Assembly (NCBI GenBank): GCA_902776305.1 | Contig: CACYPS010000029.1 | Span: 1-64,000 of the forward strand | Direction of reading: 5' to 3' | Source of the DNA: an uncultured Lachnospiraceae bacterium | GTDB lineage: Bacteria > Bacillota > Clostridia > Lachnospirales > Lachnospiraceae | Length of the DNA: 64,000 nucleotides | Part shown: positions 22,490 to 63,812 of the stretch, in pieces | Position numbering within the stretch: the stretch's first letter is position 1 | How the letters are laid out: every line of letters begins with the position of its first letter | The notes under the pieces: generated by a model | Databases searched by the model: none | Seen by the model: the letters and a program-made list of their open reading frames with translations, nothing else | What the model was told of the DNA's origin: nothing | Program-made: the position numbers and the translations under genes

Positions 22490-23676
22490 AAAAACTCCCG
22501 ATAGGAATACAGTCGTTCGAAAAACTCCGGGAGGATAATTTCCTCTATGTAGATAAAACCGCCTTAATTTATGAGCTGGTTCACAATAATACTCCTTATT
22601 TTCTCAGCCGTCCGAGAAGATTCGGGAAAAGTCTGCTTCTATCAACCATGAAAGCATACTGGGAAGGAAAGAAAGAGCTTTTTTCCGGCCTGGCTATAGA
22701 AAAACTTGAAGAGAGAAATATAACTGCCTGGCAGACGCATCCCATCTTCTACTTTGATTTCAACGGCATGAATTACCAACAGGAGCATGCATTGGAAGAC
22801 GCCCTGCACTCTCAGTTGAAACGATTTGAAGATTTTTACGGTTTTGATAGTTCCGGCCTTACTCTGAATGAACGCTTTCAGAACCTTTTAATCAGAGCAC
22901 ACAATCAGTCCGGGCTGCGCTGCGTAGTACTTATCGATGAATATGACAAGCCGCTTCTTGATGTGATCGAAACCCCTGAGCTTCACAAGCATAATAAAGA
23001 AGTCTTCAAAGTTTTTTTCAGCATCTTAAAAAGTTTTTACGAATACATTCAATTCATATTTATTACCGGTGTGTCAAAATTCCACAAAGTCAGCATTTTC
23101 AGCGATCTCAACCAGCTGAACGACATCTCATTAACGGAAGACTATGCCGCGCTGTGCGGTATTACCGAGGATGAAATAAAGAGATATTTGAATCCTTATC
23201 TGGAGATACTTGCAGACAAGCGAGGCCTCCGCAAAGAAGAGTGTATCCGGCTCCTCAGAGCGCAATACGACGGTTACCGCTTTCACCCGGATTCTATCGG
23301 AGTGTACAATCCTTTCAGCTTAATGAAGGCATTGTATGAAAAAAATTTCGGCTCGTACTGGTTCGAAACAGGAACCCCGACTTTCCTGATAAAACAGCTG
23401 AAAGAGAGTCATTTTGATGTCCGAAAATTCACCGACAGCAGCATCTATGCCGCCGAAGAGACATTAAAGGATTACACGGGTGAGGAACCGGACCCGGTCC
23501 CCCTTCTTTATCAGACCGGATATCTGACAATTTCGAGCTACGACAGCAGACGGCAAAGATATACGTTATCCTTTCCGAACGAAGAGGTGACATACGGGTT
23601 TCTTAACTGTCTGATGCCGGCATTTGTGCCTAAAGCTACAGCAGGTAACGGGCTTGACATCTATACGCTCTGCTGA
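22483..23676 (+). CDS. AAA-ATPase paralogue truncated by a repeat array (nuclease domain lost)
   Basis: This 397-residue paralogue of the preceding gene keeps MLKKLPIGIQSFEKLR, Walker A RRFGKSLLLSTM, Walker B VVLIDEYDKPLLD and the middle domain. It stops just after GLDIYTL, where the first copy continues for about 130 residues into its PD-(D/E)XK nuclease. The final Cys codon and TGA stop align with the CTCTGC-N3-TTACGG junction of the 73-bp repeat that starts right after the stop. The truncation therefore coincides with the repeat array. The start overlaps the previous stop (ATG at 22483, TGA at 22487), so the two are translationally coupled. ATP binding is probably intact, but nuclease activity is absent. 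Confidence 0.85.
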   Translation: MLKKLPIGIQSFEKLREDNFLYVDKTALIYELVHNNTPYFLSRPRRFGKSLLLSTMKAYWEGKKELFSGLAIEKLEERNITAWQTHPIFYFDFNGMNYQQEHALEDALHSQLKRFEDFYGFDSSGLTLNERFQNLLIRAHNQSGLRCVVLIDEYDKPLLDVIETPELHKHNKEVFKVFFSILKSFYEYIQFIFITGVSKFHKVSIFSDLNQLNDISLTEDYAALCGITEDEIKRYLNPYLEILADKRGLRKEECIRLLRAQYDGYRFHPDSIGVYNPFSLMKALYEKNFGSYWFETGTPTFLIKQLKESHFDVRKFTDSSIYAAEETLKDYTGEEPDPVPLLYQTGYLTISSYDSRRQRYTLSFPNEEVTYGFLNCLMPAFVPKATAGNGLDIYTLC

Positions 23677-24062
23677 TTACGGAAGTACGGGCAAAAAACC
23701 CTTGTACTTCCGTAATTTTTATGGGCACGCCATTGAATTTCTCTGCCGGTTACGGAAGTACGGGCAAAAAGCCCTCGTACTTCCGTAATTTTTATGGGCA
23801 CGCCATTGAATTTCTCTGCCCGTTACGGAAGTACGGGCAAAAAGCCCTCGTACTTCCGTAATTTTTATGGACACGCCATTGAATTTCTCTGCCCGTTACG
23901 GAAGTACGGGCAAAAAGCCCTCGTACTTCCGTAATTTTTATGGGCACGCCATTGAATTTCTCTGCCGGTTACGGAAGTACGGGCAAAAAGCCCTTGTACT
24001 TCCGTAATTTTTATGGGCACGCCATTGAATTTCTCTGCCGGTTACGGAAGTACGGGCAAACT
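23677..24062. repeat. Hairpin array with exact 73-bp period (six units)
   Basis: Units start with TTACGGAAGTACGGGC at 23677, 23750, 23823, 23896, 23969 and 24042. The opposite arm is TACTTCCGTAA and the spacer TTTTTATGGGCACGCC plus an ATTGAATTTCTCTGC segment is nearly constant. The sixth unit decays after its left arm. Between 24063 and 24290 no gene is seen. Confidence 0.95.
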
Positions 24063-31462: not shown

Positions 31463-31875
31463 TTACCGAAGTAACGATAATTTTTGTCCCTGCTTCGGTA
31501 TTCCTATTCTTGATTTCCCTGCCTTAAGCTGCCGGACTACCGAAGTAACTGAACTTTTACCCTCTGCTTCGGTGTTACTATTCCTGATTTCCTTGCCTTA
31601 AGCTGCCGGACTACCGAAGTAATTGAGCTTTTGCTCCCTGCTTCGGTATTCCTGTTCTTGATTTCCCTGCCTTAAGCTGCCGGACTACCGAAGTAACTGA
31701 GCTTTTGGCGCCTGCTTCGGTATTCTTGTTCCTGATTTCTCTGCCTCAAGCTGTCGTTTTACCGAAGTAATTGAGCTTTTGGCGCCTGCTTCGGTATTCT
31801 TGTTCTTGATTTCTCTGCCTCGAGCCTCTGCTCTACCGAAGTAATTGAGCTTTTCTCGCCTGCTTCGGTATTCCC
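31463..31875. repeat. TACCGAAGTA/GCTTCGGTA hairpin array, six units of about 75 bp
   Basis: Units begin with ACCGAAGTA near 31464, 31539, 31611, 31686, 31760 and 31833, with right arms TGCTTCGGTA and a spacer TTCTTGATTTCCCTGCCTTA. The array fills the gap between the SlyD fusion and the lipoprotein gene, and ends three bases before the lipoprotein stop. Confidence 0.93.
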
Positions 31876-33762: not shown

Positions 33763-33827
33763 ATTGTATCCTCCGGGTAAGTATTCGATATTCCTGCTCT
33801 TGATTTCTATGACTTCGGCCTATGAAC

Positions 33828-33945
33828 TACCGAAGTAGCTGAGTTTTTGGCCTCTGCTTCGGTACTCCTGCTCCTGATTTCTCTGACTTCGGCCTATGGA
33901 CTACCGAAGTAACTGAGCTTTTGGCCTCTGCTTCGGTATTCCTAC
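33828..33945. repeat. TACCGAAGTA hairpin units between iclR and kdgA
   Basis: Two full units (ACTACCGAAGTAGCTGAG and ACTACCGAAGTAACTGAG with TGCTTCGGTA arms) plus a partial spacer before them (33778-33827). Their spacer TTCCTGCTCCTGATTTCTCTG is close to that in the 31463-31875 array, showing a common origin. Confidence 0.88.
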
Positions 33946-37616: not shown

Positions 37617-37671
37617 TGGGGATTCGTAATCTTAGACTCGCGGAATTGAATTGTTTTGCTGCTTTACGGAA

Positions 37672-37777
37672 GTGGAGGCTCAAATCTCTTTTACTTCCGT
37701 AATTTGAAGTTTTCGGCATTGAATTGTTTTCTCTTTTACGGAAGTGGGAGCAAAAAACTCTTCTGCTTCCGTAATCA
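37672..37777. repeat. TTACGGAAGTG hairpin units (two)
   Basis: TTTACGGAAGTG...TTTACTTCCGTAA occurs twice with a TTTGAAGTTTTCGGCATTGA spacer. They separate the kdg terminator from the sdpRI promoter. Confidence 0.85.
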
Positions 37778-42356: not shown

Positions 42357-42692
42357 ATTACGGAAGTATTGATTAATTTTGCTTCTGCTTCCGTAAATAT
42401 TTGGTCTATCTCATGGGGATTCGACGCGGTTTACGGAAGTTTTCACTTGATTTGCTTCTACTTCCGTAATCTTGCGGCTTATTCCTATGGATGCTGAGCT
42501 TGCTTTACGGAAGTACTGGCTTGTTTGGCTTCCACTTCCGTAATCTTGCGGCTTATTCCTATGGATGCTGGGCTTGCTTTACGGAAGTACTGACTTGTTT
42601 GGCTTCTACTTCCGTAATCTTGCTCTTTATCCCGAGGGATGCCGGCTCAATTTACGGAAGTACTGGCTTGTTTGGCTTCTACTTCCGTAATC
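42357..42692. repeat. TTACGGAAGT hairpin array, five units of about 73 bp
   Basis: TTTACGGAAGTACTGGCTTG with right arm CTACTTCCGTAATC recurs near 42358, 42431, 42504, 42577 and 42650. The array separates kduD from the RpiB-like gene. The right arms TTCTACTTCCGTAA equal the IS110 insertion target in the next array. Confidence 0.9.
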
Positions 42693-42721
42693 TTGCGACT
42701 TATCTCTTAAAAACTCTCTCT

Positions 42722-43406: not shown

Positions 43407-44249
43407 TTATCTGAGCTCCGTCGTCGGGATGTTGTCCATGTCGTCAAATGCCTGGTTCTCTCCACCCATCGCCCAAATAAATGTATAGTTGCTTGTACCT
43501 GCACCGGAATGGATACTCCAGGACGGACTTATGACTGCTTCCTCGTTCTGCATAACGATATGTCTTGTCTCGTTTCCTTCGCCCATCATATGGAATACAA
43601 CGTTGTTTTCCGGAACTTCGAAGTACATGTAGATTTCCATACGGCGCTCATGTGTATGTGCCGGCATTGTGTTCCAGACACTGCCCGGCTCGAGAACTGT
43701 CATACCCATAGAAAGCTGGCATGTTTTGAGAACGTCCGGATGGATGAACTGATTGATCGTACGCTTGTTGGATGTCTCCATAGCACCTACCGGGCGCTTG
43801 TTTGCCTTCTCGATCGGAATGAAGGTTGTCTTGTAAGCGCAGTGTGCAGGAGCGCTGACCATGTAGAACTTGGCCGGCTTCTCCGGATCAACACTCTTGA
43901 ATGTAACTTTCTTTGTTCCCTGAGTGATGTAGAGGCAGTCCTTGTAGTTCATGTTGAAAGTATCGTCGTCAGCTGTGATGCAGCCTGCTCCGCCGATGTT
44001 GAAGATGCCGATCTCGCGGCGCTCAAGGATATAGTCGGTGCCGAAGTTGTGCCATACGTCGATGCCCTTTTCGAGGGGAACTTCCTCGTTGACCGGCATG
44101 CATCCGAATGTGACCATACGGTCAACATGGGAGTATACGCATACGACTTCGTCCGGGCGGTAAAGATTCGTGATGAGGAATTCATCGCGCATCTCCTGTG
44201 TGGTGTATCTCTTGAAATCTCTCTGATTTACCGAGTATCTGATGTCCAT
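43407..44249 (-). CDS. kduI: 5-dehydro-4-deoxy-D-glucuronate isomerase
   Basis: This 280-residue cupin enzyme converts the unsaturated uronate product of pectin cleavage into 2,5-diketo-3-deoxygluconate. It has the MDIRYSVNQRDFKRYTTQ start, the zinc-binding segment MPAHTHERRMEIYMYFE (two His and Glu, about residues 195-211), and a last metal His in SWSIHSGAGTSNYTFIWAMG. Length is normal. It heads the kduI-rpiB-array-kduD-pectinesterase group on the minus strand. Confidence 0.93.
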   Translation of the reverse strand: MDIRYSVNQRDFKRYTTQEMRDEFLITNLYRPDEVVCVYSHVDRMVTFGCMPVNEEVPLEKGIDVWHNFGTDYILERREIGIFNIGGAGCITADDDTFNMNYKDCLYITQGTKKVTFKSVDPEKPAKFYMVSAPAHCAYKTTFIPIEKANKRPVGAMETSNKRTINQFIHPDVLKTCQLSMGMTVLEPGSVWNTMPAHTHERRMEIYMYFEVPENNVVFHMMGEGNETRHIVMQNEEAVISPSWSIHSGAGTSNYTFIWAMGGENQAFDDMDNIPTTELR

Positions 44250-44297: not shown

Positions 44298-44844
44298 ATT
44301 ACCGAAGTAGACGGTTTTCTCCCTTTTACTTCCGTAAATTCTTCTCTGGTTTCAATGCTCGTGCAGCCAATTTACCGAAGTAGACGCCATTCTCGCTTTT
44401 ACTTCCGTAAATTCTTAGCTGGTTTCACAGACTCGAGCCGCCAACTTACCGAAGTAAACGGCATTCTCGCTCTTACTTCCGTAAATTCTTAGCTGATTTC
44501 ACAGACTCGAACCTGCAATTTACCGAAGTAAACGTAATTCTCGCTTCTACTTCCGTAAATTCTTCTATGCTTTCAATGCTCGAGCCGTCAATTTACCGAA
44601 GTAGACGGCATTCTCGCTTTTACTTCCGTAAAGCCATCTTAGTTTCACCAGCTCGAGCCGTCAATTTACCGAAGTAGACGGCATTCTCGCTTTTACTTCC
44701 GTAAATTCTTCTCTGATTTCACTGACTCGAGCCTTCAATTTACCGAAGTAAACGGCATTCTCGCTTCTACTTCCGTAATCGCTTCTTAGTTTCACCAGCC
44801 CGAGCCGACAATTTACCGAAGTAAACGGCATTCTCGCTTCTACT
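44298..44844. repeat. Hybrid hairpin array (eight units), disrupted by IS110 insertion
   Basis: Left arms are ACCGAAGTA and right arms are TACTTCCGT, so the two repeat families are mixed and each stem carries one mismatch. Units near 44299, 44371, 44445, 44518, 44592, 44665, 44739 and 44812 have a period near 73 bp. The last unit is cut within its right arm by the IS element; its remaining TCCGTAATTT is at 46450 on the other side. Confidence 0.93.
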
Positions 44845-45120
44845 CCTATTATATAGTTGTGGTGGTTAGATACCTCTCAGCCAGAAAGGACTAACCGTTC
44901 CATTGCTAAAGCTGTTAGAATAGGTGGGCATCGGTATGACACTCCTCTACTTGGACCTGTAAGCGTCCGTACGGAAGCCAGTCAGCCAGCCCTCCATTCG
45001 CAGCCGTTCGGTTTACGCAGGTTGGACTGCCTTGTGTATGTCCGCATGATACCCAGGAGATTGAATAAGCAATGGATAGCCGCTGGTACCATGCAATTCA
45101 TTATTCTTGGGGGTACGAAC
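44845..45120 (+). ncRNA. Predicted IS110 bridge RNA
   Basis: The left noncoding region folds into two loops like IS621 bridge RNA. Target loop: TGAC (44937-44940) pairs with GTCA (44981-44984), GGAC (44953-44956) pairs with GTCC (44965-44968), leaving two 12-nt arms. The left arm contains TCTACTT (44946-44952) equal to the target left side; the right arm contains TACGGAAG (44970-44977), the complement of target CTTCCGTA. Donor loop: TTCGGT/ATTGAA (45007-45012 / 45060-45065, with G-T pairs) and GGAC/GTCC (45024-45027 / 45040-45043). Its arms hold GCAGGTT (45017-45023) and AGGAG (45055-45059), matching the element ends GCAGG-CT-CCT. RNA ends are not resolved. Confidence 0.8.
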
Positions 45121-46338
45121 ATGTATAACGCAGTTGGTATTGATGTTTCAAAGGGTAAGAGCACCGTAGCGGTCCTGCAGCCGGGAGGCATTGTTGTTAA
45201 GAAACCCTATGACGTCTCACACACTGCCAGTGACCTGAAAGACCTTACTGATTACATCCGGTCCCTGGATGGGGAGACGAAAGTAGTGATGGAATCTACC
45301 GGCAGATACCATGAACCGATACTCCACACACTGTCCGGTGCCGGGCTCTTTGTCAGTGCAGTAAACCCGCACCTGATCAAGAACTATGGCAATAATACCC
45401 TCCGCAATAATAAATCCGATCCTATCGATTCCAGGAAGATTGCCCGGTATACGCTTGACAACTGGACAGAATTACGTGAATATTCCAGTATGGATACTAC
45501 ACGCGAACAACTCAAGACCCTGAATACACAGATGTCCTTCTTTACCAATCAGAAGGTCGCTGCCAAATCCAACCTGATCTCGCTCCTGGATATGACTTAT
45601 CCGGGCGTTAATGATCTCTTTGACTCCCCGACACGGGATGATGGGAGCGAGAAATGGGTCGATTATGCGGCTTCTTTCTGGCATGTGGACTGCGTCCGGA
45701 AGATCAGCCTGAATGCCTTTACAGAACGTTACCGCGCTTTCTGCAAGCGGCACGGCTACTGCTTCCAGCCTTCAAAGCCGGAGGAGCTTTACAATGCTTC
45801 AAAAGAGCTTGTCCCAGTATTTCCGAAAGAAAAGGAGTACAAGGAGATGATCCTGATGTGCATCAAGCAGCTCAATGTCATCTCCGCCAATGTGGAGCGC
45901 ACCCGCCAAAAAATGAATCAGCTTGCTTCCACCTTGCCGGAATACAGTACTGTCATGGGCATGTGTGGTGTTGGACCTACCTTCGGGCCCCAGCTGATTG
46001 CTGAGATCGGAGATGTTTCCCGGTTCACTCATCGGGAAGCCCTCACAGCCTTTGCAGGTGTGGATCCTGGCGTGAATGAGTCGGGCAAGTTCAAGAGCAA
46101 AAGCAATAAGGCTTCTAAATGCGGATCTGCCCGCCTCAGGAAAACACTGTTCCTCATTATGTCGTGTCTTCTCCAGACGCAGCCTATTGACGATCCCGTC
46201 TATTGTTTTCTGGACAAGAAGCGCTCCGAGGGGAAGCCCTATCATGTCTACATGACTGCCGGTTCCAATAAGTTCCTTCGCATCTACTATGGCAAGGTCA
46301 AAGAATGTCTTCGGGCTCAGGCAGAAGCGGATAACTAA
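45121..46338 (+). CDS. IS110-family recombinase (transposase)
   Basis: This 405-residue DEDD recombinase has a RuvC-like N-terminal domain with D8 (GIDVSK), E58 (VVMESTGRYH), D100 and D103 (NNKSDPIDSRKIARY). A coiled-coil region is followed by a Transposase_20 domain (about 285-375: MCGVGPTFGPQLIAEIGD, HREALTAFAGVDPGVNESG) with the serine-containing GSARLRKTLF. It works with a bridge RNA to join element and target without staggered-cut duplications. ATG at 45121 is chosen, since IVL-like residues from upstream frames (to 44857) fall in the noncoding left region. All catalytic residues are intact. Confidence 0.93.
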   Translation: MYNAVGIDVSKGKSTVAVLQPGGIVVKKPYDVSHTASDLKDLTDYIRSLDGETKVVMESTGRYHEPILHTLSGAGLFVSAVNPHLIKNYGNNTLRNNKSDPIDSRKIARYTLDNWTELREYSSMDTTREQLKTLNTQMSFFTNQKVAAKSNLISLLDMTYPGVNDLFDSPTRDDGSEKWVDYAASFWHVDCVRKISLNAFTERYRAFCKRHGYCFQPSKPEELYNASKELVPVFPKEKEYKEMILMCIKQLNVISANVERTRQKMNQLASTLPEYSTVMGMCGVGPTFGPQLIAEIGDVSRFTHREALTAFAGVDPGVNESGKFKSKSNKASKCGSARLRKTLFLIMSCLLQTQPIDDPVYCFLDKKRSEGKPYHVYMTAGSNKFLRIYYGKVKECLRAQAEADN

Positions 46339-46470
46339 GCATTGTGGATAACTTCTCAGGCAAGCCATCTGCATGGTGGCTTTATTGTTGTATCCAAAAT
46401 CAGTTTCATAAATTTTGTTAGATTTCTATTGACTTTTTATTAGCAGGCTTCCGTAATTTGCTCCTCCAGA

Positions 46471-46540
46471 GTCAGGCGACCATGCTTGCATGGTCATCTG
46501 ACCCGCCAATCAAAGTTTGAAAGTTTACTTTCAAACTTTC
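46471..46540. terminator. Two hairpins after the IS element, before yesL
   Basis: GACCATGC-TT-GCATGGTC inside a GTCAG/CTGAC clamp (46471-46502), and AAAGTTTGAAAGT-TT-ACTTTCAAACTTT (46512-46539, 13-bp stem). They sit 13-80 bp after the yesL stop on the minus strand and probably end that operon. Confidence 0.6.
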
Positions 46541-46552
46541 ATCCGAAAAAGC

Positions 46553-47185
46553 TCACTCGTCCCACTCCGGCTCCTCTTTCGGAATATAATGTTGAAATAC
46601 ATTCAACTGGTATAGCGCAAATATATAAGCTATCGCCCCCGCCCCGAAAAACAGGGTGGCGTAAGCGGCAAGGTTAATAGTAAACAGGTCGAGGTAAAGC
46701 ACCAATCCCAGGATAATCAGCATCTGTATAGTCGTCTTCCAATGCTTGATTGCCATAACGATCGCGTAATGAATCGTCTGCGGGACAGAGTGGATGAACT
46801 TCGCCTGAATCGCAAATACATACACAAGCGATGCAAAATACGGTATTAGCAGCGCGACCGTCAGAATCCACATGAACTTGACGCTGGAGCTGTCCATCTG
46901 GTTCCAGAAGATAAGGTTTCCGGCGAGGAGCGCCCCGATGACCGCATAAATCAGCCAAATCAGTGTAGCCTGCAGGAAATTCTCCTTGAAGGACTTGAAG
47001 AAATTGCTCAAAATATGTCCCTCATCTTTATGCAGCTTCATGCAGCTGTAAATGAGTGCTGTTGTAGATGCCCCGATCGTAACGACCGGAAGGCAGCACA
47101 GAAGCCAGATGAGATCGAGAACCCAGATCTGTCCGAGCTTCGCTATACTTCTCCATACTACATTGTCTACACTAAAGAATTTCAT
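46553..47185 (-). CDS. YesL-family membrane protein (DUF624)
   Basis: This 210-residue protein has about five membrane helices and the typical YesL start (SKLGQIWVLDLIWLLCCLPVVTIGAST, here as several short blocks) with an LHKDEG loop (about residues 52-57) found in the family. YesL proteins are encoded beside ABC sugar importers and rhamnogalacturonan or pectin genes. They are thought to assist or regulate transport; the mechanism is not known. It follows the GH28 gene on the same strand. Confidence 0.83.
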   Translation of the reverse strand: MKFFSVDNVVWRSIAKLGQIWVLDLIWLLCCLPVVTIGASTTALIYSCMKLHKDEGHILSNFFKSFKENFLQATLIWLIYAVIGALLAGNLIFWNQMDSSSVKFMWILTVALLIPYFASLVYVFAIQAKFIHSVPQTIHYAIVMAIKHWKTTIQMLIILGLVLYLDLFTINLAAYATLFFGAGAIAYIFALYQLNVFQHYIPKEEPEWDE

Positions 47186-47218
47186 TGTCTTACCTCACCT
47201 GAAAACTCTGCCAGCGAC

Positions 47219-47465
47219 AACATACATCGCTTCTGACTTAAGCTCTATCGTCAACCAACATACATCACTTCTGACTTAAGCTCTATCGTCAACCAACATA
47301 TATCGCTTCTGACTTAAGTTCTGCCATCAACCAACATACATCACTTTCTGACTTAAACTCTGCCGTCAACCAACATACATCACTTTCTGACTTAAGCTCT
47401 GCCGTCAACCGACATACATCGCTTCTGACTTAAGTTATGCCGTCAACCGACTCGCATCGCTTTCT
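47219..47465. repeat. 38-39-bp direct tandem repeat between yesL and the GH28 gene
   Basis: TTCTGACTTAAG blocks recur at 47231, 47269, 47307, 47346, 47385 and 47423, followed by CTGCCGTCAACC-type spacers. The repeat is not palindromic like the hairpin arrays. Confidence 0.9.
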
Positions 47466-51001: not shown

Positions 51002-51194
51002 AAGTTAAGAATCTCCTGTTTAAAACAAGCGACCGACCCGGACTGTCTCGGGCCGGCCGCCTTTACCCCTATTTGTGCATTTAAAATGCCTTGTAGTCCA
51101 CTATTAAAGTGCCATTGCTGTCTCTACTGTGATGTCCGTACTTTGGTCATATGCCGATCACTTAAGTGCTGCCTCTTCTATGATGTCTGTTCTG

Positions 51195-51310
51195 TGATGT
51201 ATGCTTTCGGTCACTTACATGTTGTCTGCTCAGTGATGTCTGCTTTCGGTCACTTACATGTTGTCTGCTCAGTGATGTCTGCTTTCGGTCACTTACATGT
51301 CTTGAGGTCA
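51195..51310. repeat. 39-bp direct tandem repeat between permease and binding-protein genes
   Basis: TGATGTCTGCTTTCGG and CACTTACATGTTGTCTGCTC recur at 51195, 51234 and 51273. Less exact pieces extend to 51400. No gene is seen here. Confidence 0.88.
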
Positions 51311-52976: not shown

Positions 52977-53093
52977 TTGTATCTTGCTGTCCGCTTATGC
53001 TGCCTTCCGGTTGTATCTTGCTGTCCGCTTATGCTGCCTTCCGGTTGTATCTTGCTGTCCGCTTATGCTGTCTTCCGGTTGTATCTTGCTGTC
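52977..53093. repeat. 34-bp direct tandem repeat between binding-protein and GH105 genes
   Basis: TTGTATCTTGCTGTCCGCTT plus ATGCTGCCTTCCGG recur at 52977, 53011, 53045 and 53079 (exact 34-bp period, last unit partial). Confidence 0.92.
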
Positions 53094-55653: not shown

Positions 55654-56435
55654 TTACCGAAGTAATCGGCTATTCTTGCTCTGCTTCGGTATTGCAATGC
55701 CGGCGGGCACTGTATGGCATGGAAGGATTACCGAAGTAGGCGGCCAATCTTGCTATACTTCGGTATTGCAATACCGGCAGGCTCTGTATGGAATGGATGG
55801 TTTACCGAAGTAGCCGCTTAATCTTGCTCTGCTTCGGTATTTCAATGCCGGCGGACTCTGTATGGAATGGCTGGTTTACCGAAGTAGCCGCTTAATCTTG
55901 CTCTACTTCGGTATTTCAATGCCGGCGGGCTCTGTATGGAATGGATGGTTTACCGAAGTAGCCGCTTAATCTTGCTCTGCTTCGGTATTGCAATGCCGGC
56001 GGGCCCTGTATGGAATGGATGGTTTACCGAAGTAGCCGCTTAATCTTGTTCTGCTTCGGTATTTCAATGCCGGCGGGCTCTGTATGGAATGGATGGTTTA
56101 CCGAAGTAGCCGCTTAATCTTGCTCTGCTTCGGTATTTCAATGCCGGCGGGCTCTGTATGGAATGGATGGTTTACCGAAGTAGCCGCTTAATCTTGTTCT
56201 GCTTCGGTATTTCAATGTCGGCGGGCTCTGTATGGCATGGATGGTTTACCGAAGTAGCCGCTTAATCTTGCTCTACTTCGGTATTTCAATGTCGGCGGGC
56301 TCTGTATGGCATGGATGGTTTACCGAAGTAGCCGCTTAATCTTGTTCTACTTCGGTATTTCACCCTGTAGGATATGGTATGGCAAGACAGCTTTACCGAA
56401 GTAGCCGCTTAATCTTGCTCTGCTTCGGTATTTCA
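55654..56435. repeat. Hairpin array of eleven units (TACCGAAGTA / TACTTCGGTA)
   Basis: Eleven units with a period near 72 bp carry TTTACCGAAGTAGCCGCTTA, right arm CTTCGGTATT and spacer TCAATGCCGGCGGGC plus TCTGTATGGAATGG. Most differ by one to three bases. From 55463 to 55650 and around the array no gene is seen. Confidence 0.95.
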
Positions 56436-56492
56436 ATGCCGGCGGTTCTTGGTTCATGCCAAGAAAACATACAAATATAGTTAACTCCCCAC

Positions 56493-59453: not shown

Positions 59454-59493
59454 TGAAAATGCGCCTGTCTCTCAAGGTGGTCATGCAAATGAG

Positions 59494-59730
59494 AGTACAG
59501 GCTGCATTTGAAAAATTAACACTCAAATAAAAGCAGCTGCACCCGACACGGCGTCTTATACACGAGAACACAGGCTGCATTTGAAAAATTAACACTCAAA
59601 TGAAAGCAGCTGCACCCAGCAAAGTGTCTTATACACGAGAGTACAGGCTACATTTGAAAAATTAACACTCAAATAAAAGCAGCCGCACCCAACAAGGCGT
59701 CTCATGCAACAGAGTACATGCTGCATAATA
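59494..59730. repeat. 73-bp direct repeat between uxaC and uxaB
   Basis: GGCTGCATTTGAAAAATTAA followed by CACTCAAATAAAAGCAGCTG recurs at 59501, 59574 and 59647, with a partial unit at 59720, all at exactly 73-bp spacing. GCTGC/GCAGC and TTTG/CAAA can form a weak hairpin in each unit. The stem sequence is unrelated to the other arrays. Confidence 0.9.
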
Positions 59731-63167: not shown

Positions 63168-63343
63168 TCCTGCGGGCTGTTTGGCGGCGATGTTAATTTG
63201 CGCTTAATGCTATGCTTTAGCTATAATTCTATTGCTTAGCCACGATACTATTGCTCAGCTACAATACTATTACTTAACTATGATGCATCGCTTAGCTATA
63301 ATACTATTACTTAACTATGATGCTAATTTTCTGATAAGGGATG

Positions 63344-63384: not shown

Positions 63385-63401
63385 TGTGTGGAAATATCCG
63401 C

Positions 63402-63812
63402 TTTACCGAAGCAGACGGCATTCTTGCTCCTACTTCGGTATTCCTTGGGCTTGTTTGTCTTACATCTGCTGCCCGTTTACCGAAGCAGACACCATTCTTG
63501 CTTTTACTTCGGTATCCCTTGGGCTTGTTTGTCTTGCAATTGCTCCCGGTTTACCGAAGCAGACACCCTTCTTGCTTTTACTTCGGTATCCCTTGGGCTT
63601 GTTTGTCTTGCAATTGCTCCCGGTTTACCGAAGTAGCCGCCATTCTTGCTCCTACTTCGGTATCCCTTGGGCTTGTTTGTCTTGCAATTGCTCCCGGTTT
63701 ACCGAAGTAGCCGCCATTCTTGCTCCTACTTCGGTATTCCTTGGGCTTGTTTGTCTTGCATCTGCTGCCCGTTTACCGAAGTAGCCGCCATTCTTGCTCC
63801 CACTTCGGTATT
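63402..63812. repeat. TACCGAAGCA/TACTTCGGTA hairpin array, six units of about 74 bp
   Basis: Units near 63402, 63477, 63552, 63626, 63700 and 63773 share TTTACCGAAGCAGACAC/TTTACCGAAGTAGCCGCC left parts, right arm CTACTTCGGTAT and spacer CCTTGGGCTTGTTTGTCTTG. Confidence 0.93.

What the first reader, a model, noticed from the sequence alone, without database searches (positions are those of the whole stretch)
44946..44977. IS110 bridge-RNA target loop readable from the element and matching its own insertion site
In the 276-bp noncoding left region, TCTACTT equals the left side of the occupied target and TACGGAAG is complementary to the right side CTTCCGTA. These two guides sit in symmetric 12-nt arms of an internal loop closed by TGAC/GTCA outside and GGAC/GTCC inside. 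This is the layout established for IS621 (IS110 family). Sequence match, loop geometry and position left of the recombinase gene agree independently. The target is a dispersed hairpin repeat, so the guide appears tuned for a repeat family rather than for one gene.
Basis: partly seen in the sequence, partly recalled or inferred. Interest (0 to 1): 0.93.

Follow-up and report, generated by a model that had tools for sequence, protein, structure and literature searches.

The report
RNA-guided jumping gene targeting repeats
A small bacterial jumping gene appears to carry its own RNA address label that spells out the very repeat it sits in, while many of its relatives carry labels that spell the ribosome-binding sites of genes, so the label seems to be rewritten as such elements settle in different hosts.

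Summary
The window holds one complete IS110-group insertion sequence (body 44845-46447, core CT on both sides, DEDD recombinase 45121-46338). Its 276-bp left end encodes a bridge-RNA-type structure whose target loop matches the occupied site at 10 of 11 scored non-core positions; 0 of 50,000 shuffles show both guide words in this geometry. Over 40 different bridges (window plus relatives), guides co-vary with their own insertion sites: 0 of 20,000 permutations on either side, also within donor-end classes. Two additions: half of the left guides (20 of 40; 15 of 21 in the window's own class) end in CTCCT, the complement of a Shine-Dalgarno core, and 27 of 44 sites lie just before a start codon with an open frame (14.7% for random sites). 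The window's element instead matches an arm of a 73-bp tandem repeat abundant in only 2 of 42 congeneric genomes; one distant relative matches another repeat with 63 exact copies in its genome. Repeat targeting (IS621) and a Shine-Dalgarno-like motif (IS900) are already known, so this is a new member of a known kind. No RNA or transposition data exist.

The parts
44299..44844 (+). Tandem array of about 7.4 units of 73 bp holding the target arm TACTTCCGTAA; left flank of the element
44843..44844 (.). Left copy of the core dinucleotide CT
44845..46447 (+). IS110-group insertion sequence, 1603 bp without core; one copy found in this genome
44847..44852 (+). TATTAT, -10-like half of the promoter that forms when the element is a circle
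44864..44896 (+). 5' stem-loop of the predicted bridge RNA (GGTTAG/CTAACC, inner CCTCTC/GAAAGG); the outer helix is the least conserved of the structure (68.5% of cells paired)
44900..45075 (+). Two-loop region closed by CCATTGCT/AGCAATGG
44937..44984 (+). Target-binding loop: TGAC/GTCA outside, GGAC/GTCC inside, two 12-nt arms
44944..44952 (+). Left target guide; TCTACT pairs up to and including the core
44970..44977 (+). Right target guide TACGGAAG, complement of CTTCCGTA
45006..45066 (+). Donor-binding loop: GTTCG/TGAAT outside, GGAC/GTCC inside (45024-45027 / 45040-45043)
45017..45023 (+). Left donor guide GCAGGTT, matches the element end GCAGG-CT
45055..45059 (+). Right donor guide AGGAG, complement of CT-CCT at the element start
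45121..46338 (+). IS110 DEDD recombinase, 405 aa (PF01548, PF02371)
46429..46447 (+). Right end TTGACTTTTTATTAGCAGG with the -35-like TTGACT
46448..46449 (.). Right copy of the core dinucleotide CT

Best explanation
The window holds an intact-looking IS110-group insertion sequence that integrates by bridge-RNA-guided recombination. Shown from sequence: boundaries and CT core; recombinase homology; a two-loop RNA-type structure conserved with compensatory changes; target guides that match the occupied site and co-vary across relatives; donor guides that match the element's own ends and co-vary; a consensus-like promoter that forms only at the circle junction. Inferred: the element excises as a circle, the junction promoter makes the bridge RNA, the recombinase uses it to hold the target (arm of the 73-bp repeat) and the donor junction together, and strands are exchanged at CT. 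A common guide among its relatives is an anti-Shine-Dalgarno sequence; this element's guide has changed to match a repeat abundant in its host lineage. The direction of that change is inferred from tree position only.
For: Recombinase: PF01548 102 bits and PF02371 69 bits, aligned to IS621 8wt6 with D8, E58, D100, D103 and the ESG serine motif kept (residue numbers counted by me on the ORF; that these are the catalytic residues is recalled). Own guide: 5 of 6 left and 5 of 5 right non-core positions; own target is the best of 36 for this guide (10 of 11; next 6). Family test: left 176 of 234 positions against 113.7 +/- 6.4 permuted, right 134 of 170 against 65.7 +/- 5.6, 0 of 20,000 each; permuted only within the two donor-end classes 176 against 122.0 and 134 against 72.0, and without the window element 171 against 120.3 and 129 against 70.1, 0 of 20,000 each. 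Structure: 54 pairs, 91.3% of cells paired against 26.5-43.6% when slid, 19 pairs with changes on both sides against 10.8 shuffled; target and donor stems predicted without a given structure. Right donor guide is the exact complement of the element start in 35 of 39, over four classes. Circle junction with TTGACT-like and TAnnnT hexamers in all 36 rows printed. Target copies: 18 exact of TCTACTTCCGTA (reversed control 1); TACTTCCGTAA 119 here and 98 in G011, 0-3 in each of the other 40.
Against: No RNA, circle or movement was observed. One copy only was found in this genome, and no syntenic empty site in the one related genome that has the repeat. Several relatives disobey on one side: right scores of 0, 0, 0, 1, 2, 3, 3 of 5, left 1, 2, 3, 3, 3 of 6; two copies of one element in G001 match their right flanks 0 and 4 of 5. 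Only 20 of 36 elements have their own target as the best match. Guides and core offsets were read off by eye before scoring, and for the ACT, GTT and ATT classes the core was placed with the help of the donor guide. Elements are related, so permutation over-counts independence. The single-sequence fold is only mildly better than shuffles (z -2.06, 7 of 200 as good; z -1.19 for a shorter stretch) and does not show the donor loop as drawn; the RNAalifold structure pairs parts of the donor arms with each other.
Confidence: 0.93

Rival explanations
1. The recombinase recognises its target by protein contacts; the guide match in the left end is a by-product such as sequence captured from earlier sites.
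For: The target is a repeat arm, so its letters are common in this genome.
Against: The match is split into two strand-specific halves inside a conserved internal loop, and 40 different guides follow their own sites at those positions. Captured DNA would not give one same-strand and one complementary half.
Confidence: 0.03
2. The element landed here by chance or by homologous recombination between repeats; its guide prefers another site.
For: Only one copy is known; the left guide has one mismatch at -7.
Against: 10 of 11 non-core positions match and the core is clean on both sides; the best of the 35 other elements' targets scores 6.
Confidence: 0.03
3. The Shine-Dalgarno preference of the relatives is an artefact of shared ancestry and of the element's own CCT start, not of guide choice.
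For: CCT-class elements begin with CCT, which by itself extends CTCCT; related elements share guides; the label 'start codon next to core' is not clustered on the recombinase tree.
Against: The left flank itself, outside the element, ends in CTCCT in 20 of 39. Elements starting with ACT, GTT or ATT also lie before start codons. A start codon with an open frame follows in 27 of 44 flanks against 1292 of 8800 random AG sites; an SD-like four-mer lies at the core in 38 of 44 against 1543 of 4300 random AG sites.
Confidence: 0.1

Closest known systems
IS621 and its bridge RNA (IS110 group, E. coli; PMC11208160, passages and section 6)
   Same: Bridge RNA in the left end: 5' stem-loop, target loop, then donor loop; split guides that include the core; CT core; promoter rebuilt at the circle junction; target in a dispersed palindromic repeat (REP).
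   Different: Right target covariation covers the core plus 5 positions here; the paper uses a four-base right guide for IS621 and reports longer ones in some orthologues. Recombinase 405 aa against 328 in the solved chain, the extra length lying in the middle. Another repeat.
IS900 (IS110 family, Mycobacterium avium subsp. paratuberculosis; PMC8141618, passages)
   Same: Reported insertion motif CATGNNNNNNTCTCCTT resembles the CAT...CTCCTTT targets of many of this element's relatives.
   Different: The window's element does not sit at such a site; no bridge RNA of IS900 was examined here.
ISPa11, ISPpu9/10 and other REP-targeting elements (PMC1525189, abstract; PMC11187229, passages)
   Same: Selective insertion into extragenic palindromic repeats.
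   Different: ISPa11 is an IS1111-type element, in which the non-coding region usually lies downstream of the gene; here it is upstream.

Membership tests
IS110 family | DEDD RuvC-like N-terminal domain and C-terminal serine domain | tested here: met
IS110 group (not IS1111) | Non-coding region upstream of the gene longer than the downstream one | tested here: met
   276 bp left, 109 bp right (46339-46447)
IS110 group (not IS1111) | No long subterminal inverted repeats | not tested
   no repeat search of the ends was run
Bridge-RNA elements (IS621 type) | 5' stem-loop, then target loop, then donor loop | tested here: met
   layout from PMC11208160 section 6
Bridge-RNA elements (IS621 type) | Target guides complementary to bottom-left and top-right strands including the core | tested here: met
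Bridge-RNA elements (IS621 type) | Donor guides complementary to the element's own joined ends | tested here: met
Bridge-RNA elements (IS621 type) | Promoter rebuilt across the circle junction | tested here: met
   TTGACT, 17 nt, TATTAT; by sequence only
Bridge-RNA elements (IS621 type) | RNA is made and bound by the recombinase | not testable with these tools
   no reads, no biochemistry
Rfam families | Match to a curated RNA family | tested here: not met
   0 matches at gathering score in the 64 kb; whether Rfam 15 holds a bridge RNA model was not checked

The most novel reading that the evidence does not exclude
An IS110 clade found in Lachnospiraceae and other Clostridia uses an anti-Shine-Dalgarno bridge-RNA guide as its general-purpose setting, which gives landing sites upstream of genes in any host, and individual lineages have repeatedly rewritten both guide arms to match high-copy repeats peculiar to their host (the window's 73-bp arrays; the 63-copy repeat of L033's genome). 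This would be natural retargeting of an RNA-guided recombinase that can be followed in sequence.
Probability: 0.5. Interest if true: 0.68.

Novelty: new member of a known kind. Interest (0 to 1): 0.5.

Why it matters
Bridge RNAs are programmable recombination guides. A clade in which target guides can be read beside their occupied sites, with one common setting (ribosome-binding sites) and switches to host repeats, gives natural examples of how such guides change target, and a set of further orthologues whose right guides span about seven bases including the core.

Tried and rejected
Rfam gave no match. Searching the related genome G011 (76% complete), which shares the repeat, for a syntenic empty site gave only repeat copies. 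Plasmid records held two relatives, 65.0% and 63.8%, and viral contigs two; neither pair was analysed further. I chose five elements by eye whose guides do not look anti-Shine-Dalgarno (window, L024, L032, L033, L052; L041 is another that I did not test) and asked whether the target is a repeat. It is for two: the window and L033 (63 exact, 71 with up to one mismatch, control 2). L032: 2 exact places, 5 with one mismatch, control 3. L024: 3 exact, 31 with one mismatch, control 16, the pattern being built from its left guide and right flank because its left end is unclear. L052: none. So repeat targeting is not general. The label 'start codon next to core' is not clustered on the recombinase tree (11 changes, shuffled mean 10.2), so I claim no date for a switch; that label misses sites with short or broken frames and counts some by chance. 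My first parse of right donor guides misread L033, L035, L044 and L087 and was redone. My first bracket string was wrong and was redone.

Rows used and dropped; 27 elements listed, of which L049 and L056 were dropped before the permutation as repeated bridges; 45 elements, 40 different bridges, 39 with a left and 34 with a right flank. Used 23 of the 29 loci (not L021, L025, L040, L042, L047, L048: an end or the bridge is missing or degenerate), 3 loci besides the window itself (L051, L052, L056; the others are distant or partial), and 18 of the 29 loci L067-L095 (L067, L068, L069, L081 repeat elements; L080, L084, L088, L092 lack the left end; L089, L091 are a distant class; L090 is broken). 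One search counts 44 left flanks, including repeated bridges at different sites and one flank present twice (L087, L095). The alignment took 18 of the 39 bridge regions that delimited (five more had no end found): CCT-class elements, without L037, L049 and L056. The tree left out seven short proteins.

Full report
What is there. Between a gene with a KduI/IolB domain (43407-44249, minus strand) and a DUF624 gene (46553-47185, minus strand) lies one insertion sequence, 44845-46447, flanked on each side by the dinucleotide CT. It carries one gene, 45121-46338, with both IS110 Pfam domains and sequence similarity to the solved IS621 (8wt6) and ISCro4 (9t56) recombinases. Between the two aligned parts it has about 80 residues more than IS621 (query 112-277 against chain 116-199). 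A DNA search of the host genome finds the element once.

The target loop. [quoted passage not shown] the right arm is its complement. This is the strand logic published for IS621: the left guide pairs with the bottom strand, the right guide with the top strand, both including the core (PMC11208160, passages and section 6). In 50,000 shuffles of the left end both words were never found together at 10-40 nt.

The structure. Eighteen homologous left ends were aligned. The named structure of 54 pairs is formed in 91.3% of cells, against 26.5 to 43.6% when slid, and 19 pairs have changes on both sides against 10.8 in shuffles. RNAalifold, given no structure, predicts the target and donor loop stems, but it also pairs parts of the two donor arms with each other. 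The inner and outer target stems hardly vary and so say little by themselves: of their eight pairs one shows a change on both sides, in one sequence. More compensatory change lies in the lower target stem (6 of 10 pairs) and in one inner donor pair (GC in 12, AU in 6). The outer helix of the 5' stem-loop is formed in only 68.5% of cells. A single-sequence fold is only weakly better than shuffled sequence and does not show the donor loop as drawn.

Covariation with targets. I read guides and flanks of the window element and its relatives and scored only positions outside the core. With 40 different bridges, left guides match their own flank in 176 of 234 positions (39 elements, six positions) against 113.7 expected by permutation, right guides in 134 of 170 (34 elements, five positions) against 65.7; no permutation of 20,000 reached either. 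The signal ends at -8 on the left and +7 on the right. Permuting within the two donor-end classes, or leaving the window element out, does not change this. Of 36 elements with both flanks, 20 have their own target as the best match of all. The misses are real: right scores of 0, 0, 0, 1, 2, 3 and 3 of 5, and left 1, 2, 3, 3 and 3 of 6. In G001 two copies of one element share a bridge but match their right flanks 0 and 4 of 5. Rearranged or shifted right flanks might explain this; I did not test it.

Donor loop and promoter. The right donor guide is the exact complement of core plus element start in 35 of 39 elements, over four classes (CTCCT, CTACT, CTGTT, CTATT); the other four differ by one base. 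The left donor guide follows the element's end: GCAGG with GCAGG in 24, GTAGG with GTAGG in 3, GCAGA with GCAGA in 1, GCAGG with GCAGA in 5 and with GCTGG in 1, of 34. Joining right and left end across the core gives TTGACT, 17 nt, TATTAT in the window element, and the like in the 36 junctions listed (one reads TTGATT, one TTGCCT). The IS621 paper reports a promoter rebuilt across the core of the joined ends.

What the targets are. The window's target is one arm of a 73-bp unit, repeated about seven times left of the element, whose arms TTACCGAAGTA and TACTTCCGTAA face each other. This unit's hairpin is weak as DNA (z -0.59), that of another array in the window stronger (z -4.30). The exact target TCTACTTCCGTA occurs 18 times in the genome, the same letters reversed once. 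The arm TACTTCCGTAA occurs 119 times here and 98 times in G011, and at most 3 times in each of the other 40 genomes of the genus; G011, 76% complete, shows no copy of the element. The arrangement of a repeat arm running into TAATTTG, uninterrupted, is seen at three other places in the genome, two of them joined to the same second repeat (L006, L014).

Relatives. Of 40 different bridges, 20 have a left guide ending in CTCCT (15 of the 21 in the window's donor-end class), 17 expect CTTTC on the right, and 14 have both. On the other strand this target is GAAAGGAG. A start codon with an open frame lies 3-16 nt beyond the core in 27 of 44 flanks, against 1292 of 8800 random AG sites. An SD-like four-mer lies at the core in 38 of 44, against 1543 of 4300 random AG sites. 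A few of the 27 are doubtful: in L023 and L041 the flank has a start codon but no SD-like four-mer. The window element has no SD-like four-mer, and no start codon followed by a long frame, there. IS900 has a comparable reported motif, CATGNNNNNNTCTCCTT (PMC8141618, passages), so such targets are not new for IS110. I found no paper that joins this with bridge-RNA guides among the papers listed by three full-text searches (12 of 30 listed; 3 of 3; 6 of 7) of the held library, which lacks most subscription journals and all preprints. L033, 59% identical to the window's recombinase, targets CTCGCTTGATTG, present 63 times exactly in its own genome. L032, L024 and L052 show no clear enrichment.

Reading. 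The element met every IS110 and bridge-RNA feature that was tested; RNA production could not be tested. On the recombinase tree the smallest well-supported set of eight rows around it holds three elements with CTCCT guides (L022, L046, L070), two with TTCCT (L023, L039), L024 with a different guide and L021 with none readable; L024 is its nearest row with weak support (88/73, guides). A change of guide from ribosome-binding sites to a host repeat is the simplest order of events, but it is inferred, not shown. Papers seen: PMC11208160 (passages, section 6), PMC11187229 (outline, section 13, passages), PMC8141618 and PMC7823733 (passages), PMC1525189 (outline and abstract); PMC11208158 only in search listings.

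Noticed in passing
23668-24060, 31464-31874, 33784-33943, 37641-37775, 42430-42703, 44299-44844, 55654-56445, 63398-63811: Eight tandem arrays of 72-74-bp units in 64 kb, with diverged bodies but related facing arms of the kind TTAC(C/G)GAAGTA and TACTTC(C/G)GTAA. The exact arm TACTTCCGTAA is abundant in two of 42 genomes of the genus. Origin and role unknown.
   Followed up: partly
46453-46550: A second dispersed repeat, 36 further places found in the genome. Read on the minus strand it is a hairpin (GGTCAG...CTGACC) followed by GGAGGAGCAAATTA; in 7 of the 19 loci looked at, an open frame starts 4-21 nt after GGAGG, six of them at the same ATG (no control made). It may supply a ribosome-binding site to unrelated genes.
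   Followed up: partly
47218-47465, 51180-51300, 52977-53093, 59491-59726, 63205-63325: Further tandem arrays with other units of 19-73 bp.
   Followed up: no
L032:820-870: The target of L032 is one arm of a hairpin (CAATCGAGTAGG...CCTACTCGATTG across the empty site), with one further such pair of arms in that genome, one arm with a mismatch.
   Followed up: partly
L102, L103: Relatives of the recombinase (72% and 62%) on two contigs classed as viral; flanks and guides not read.
   Followed up: no
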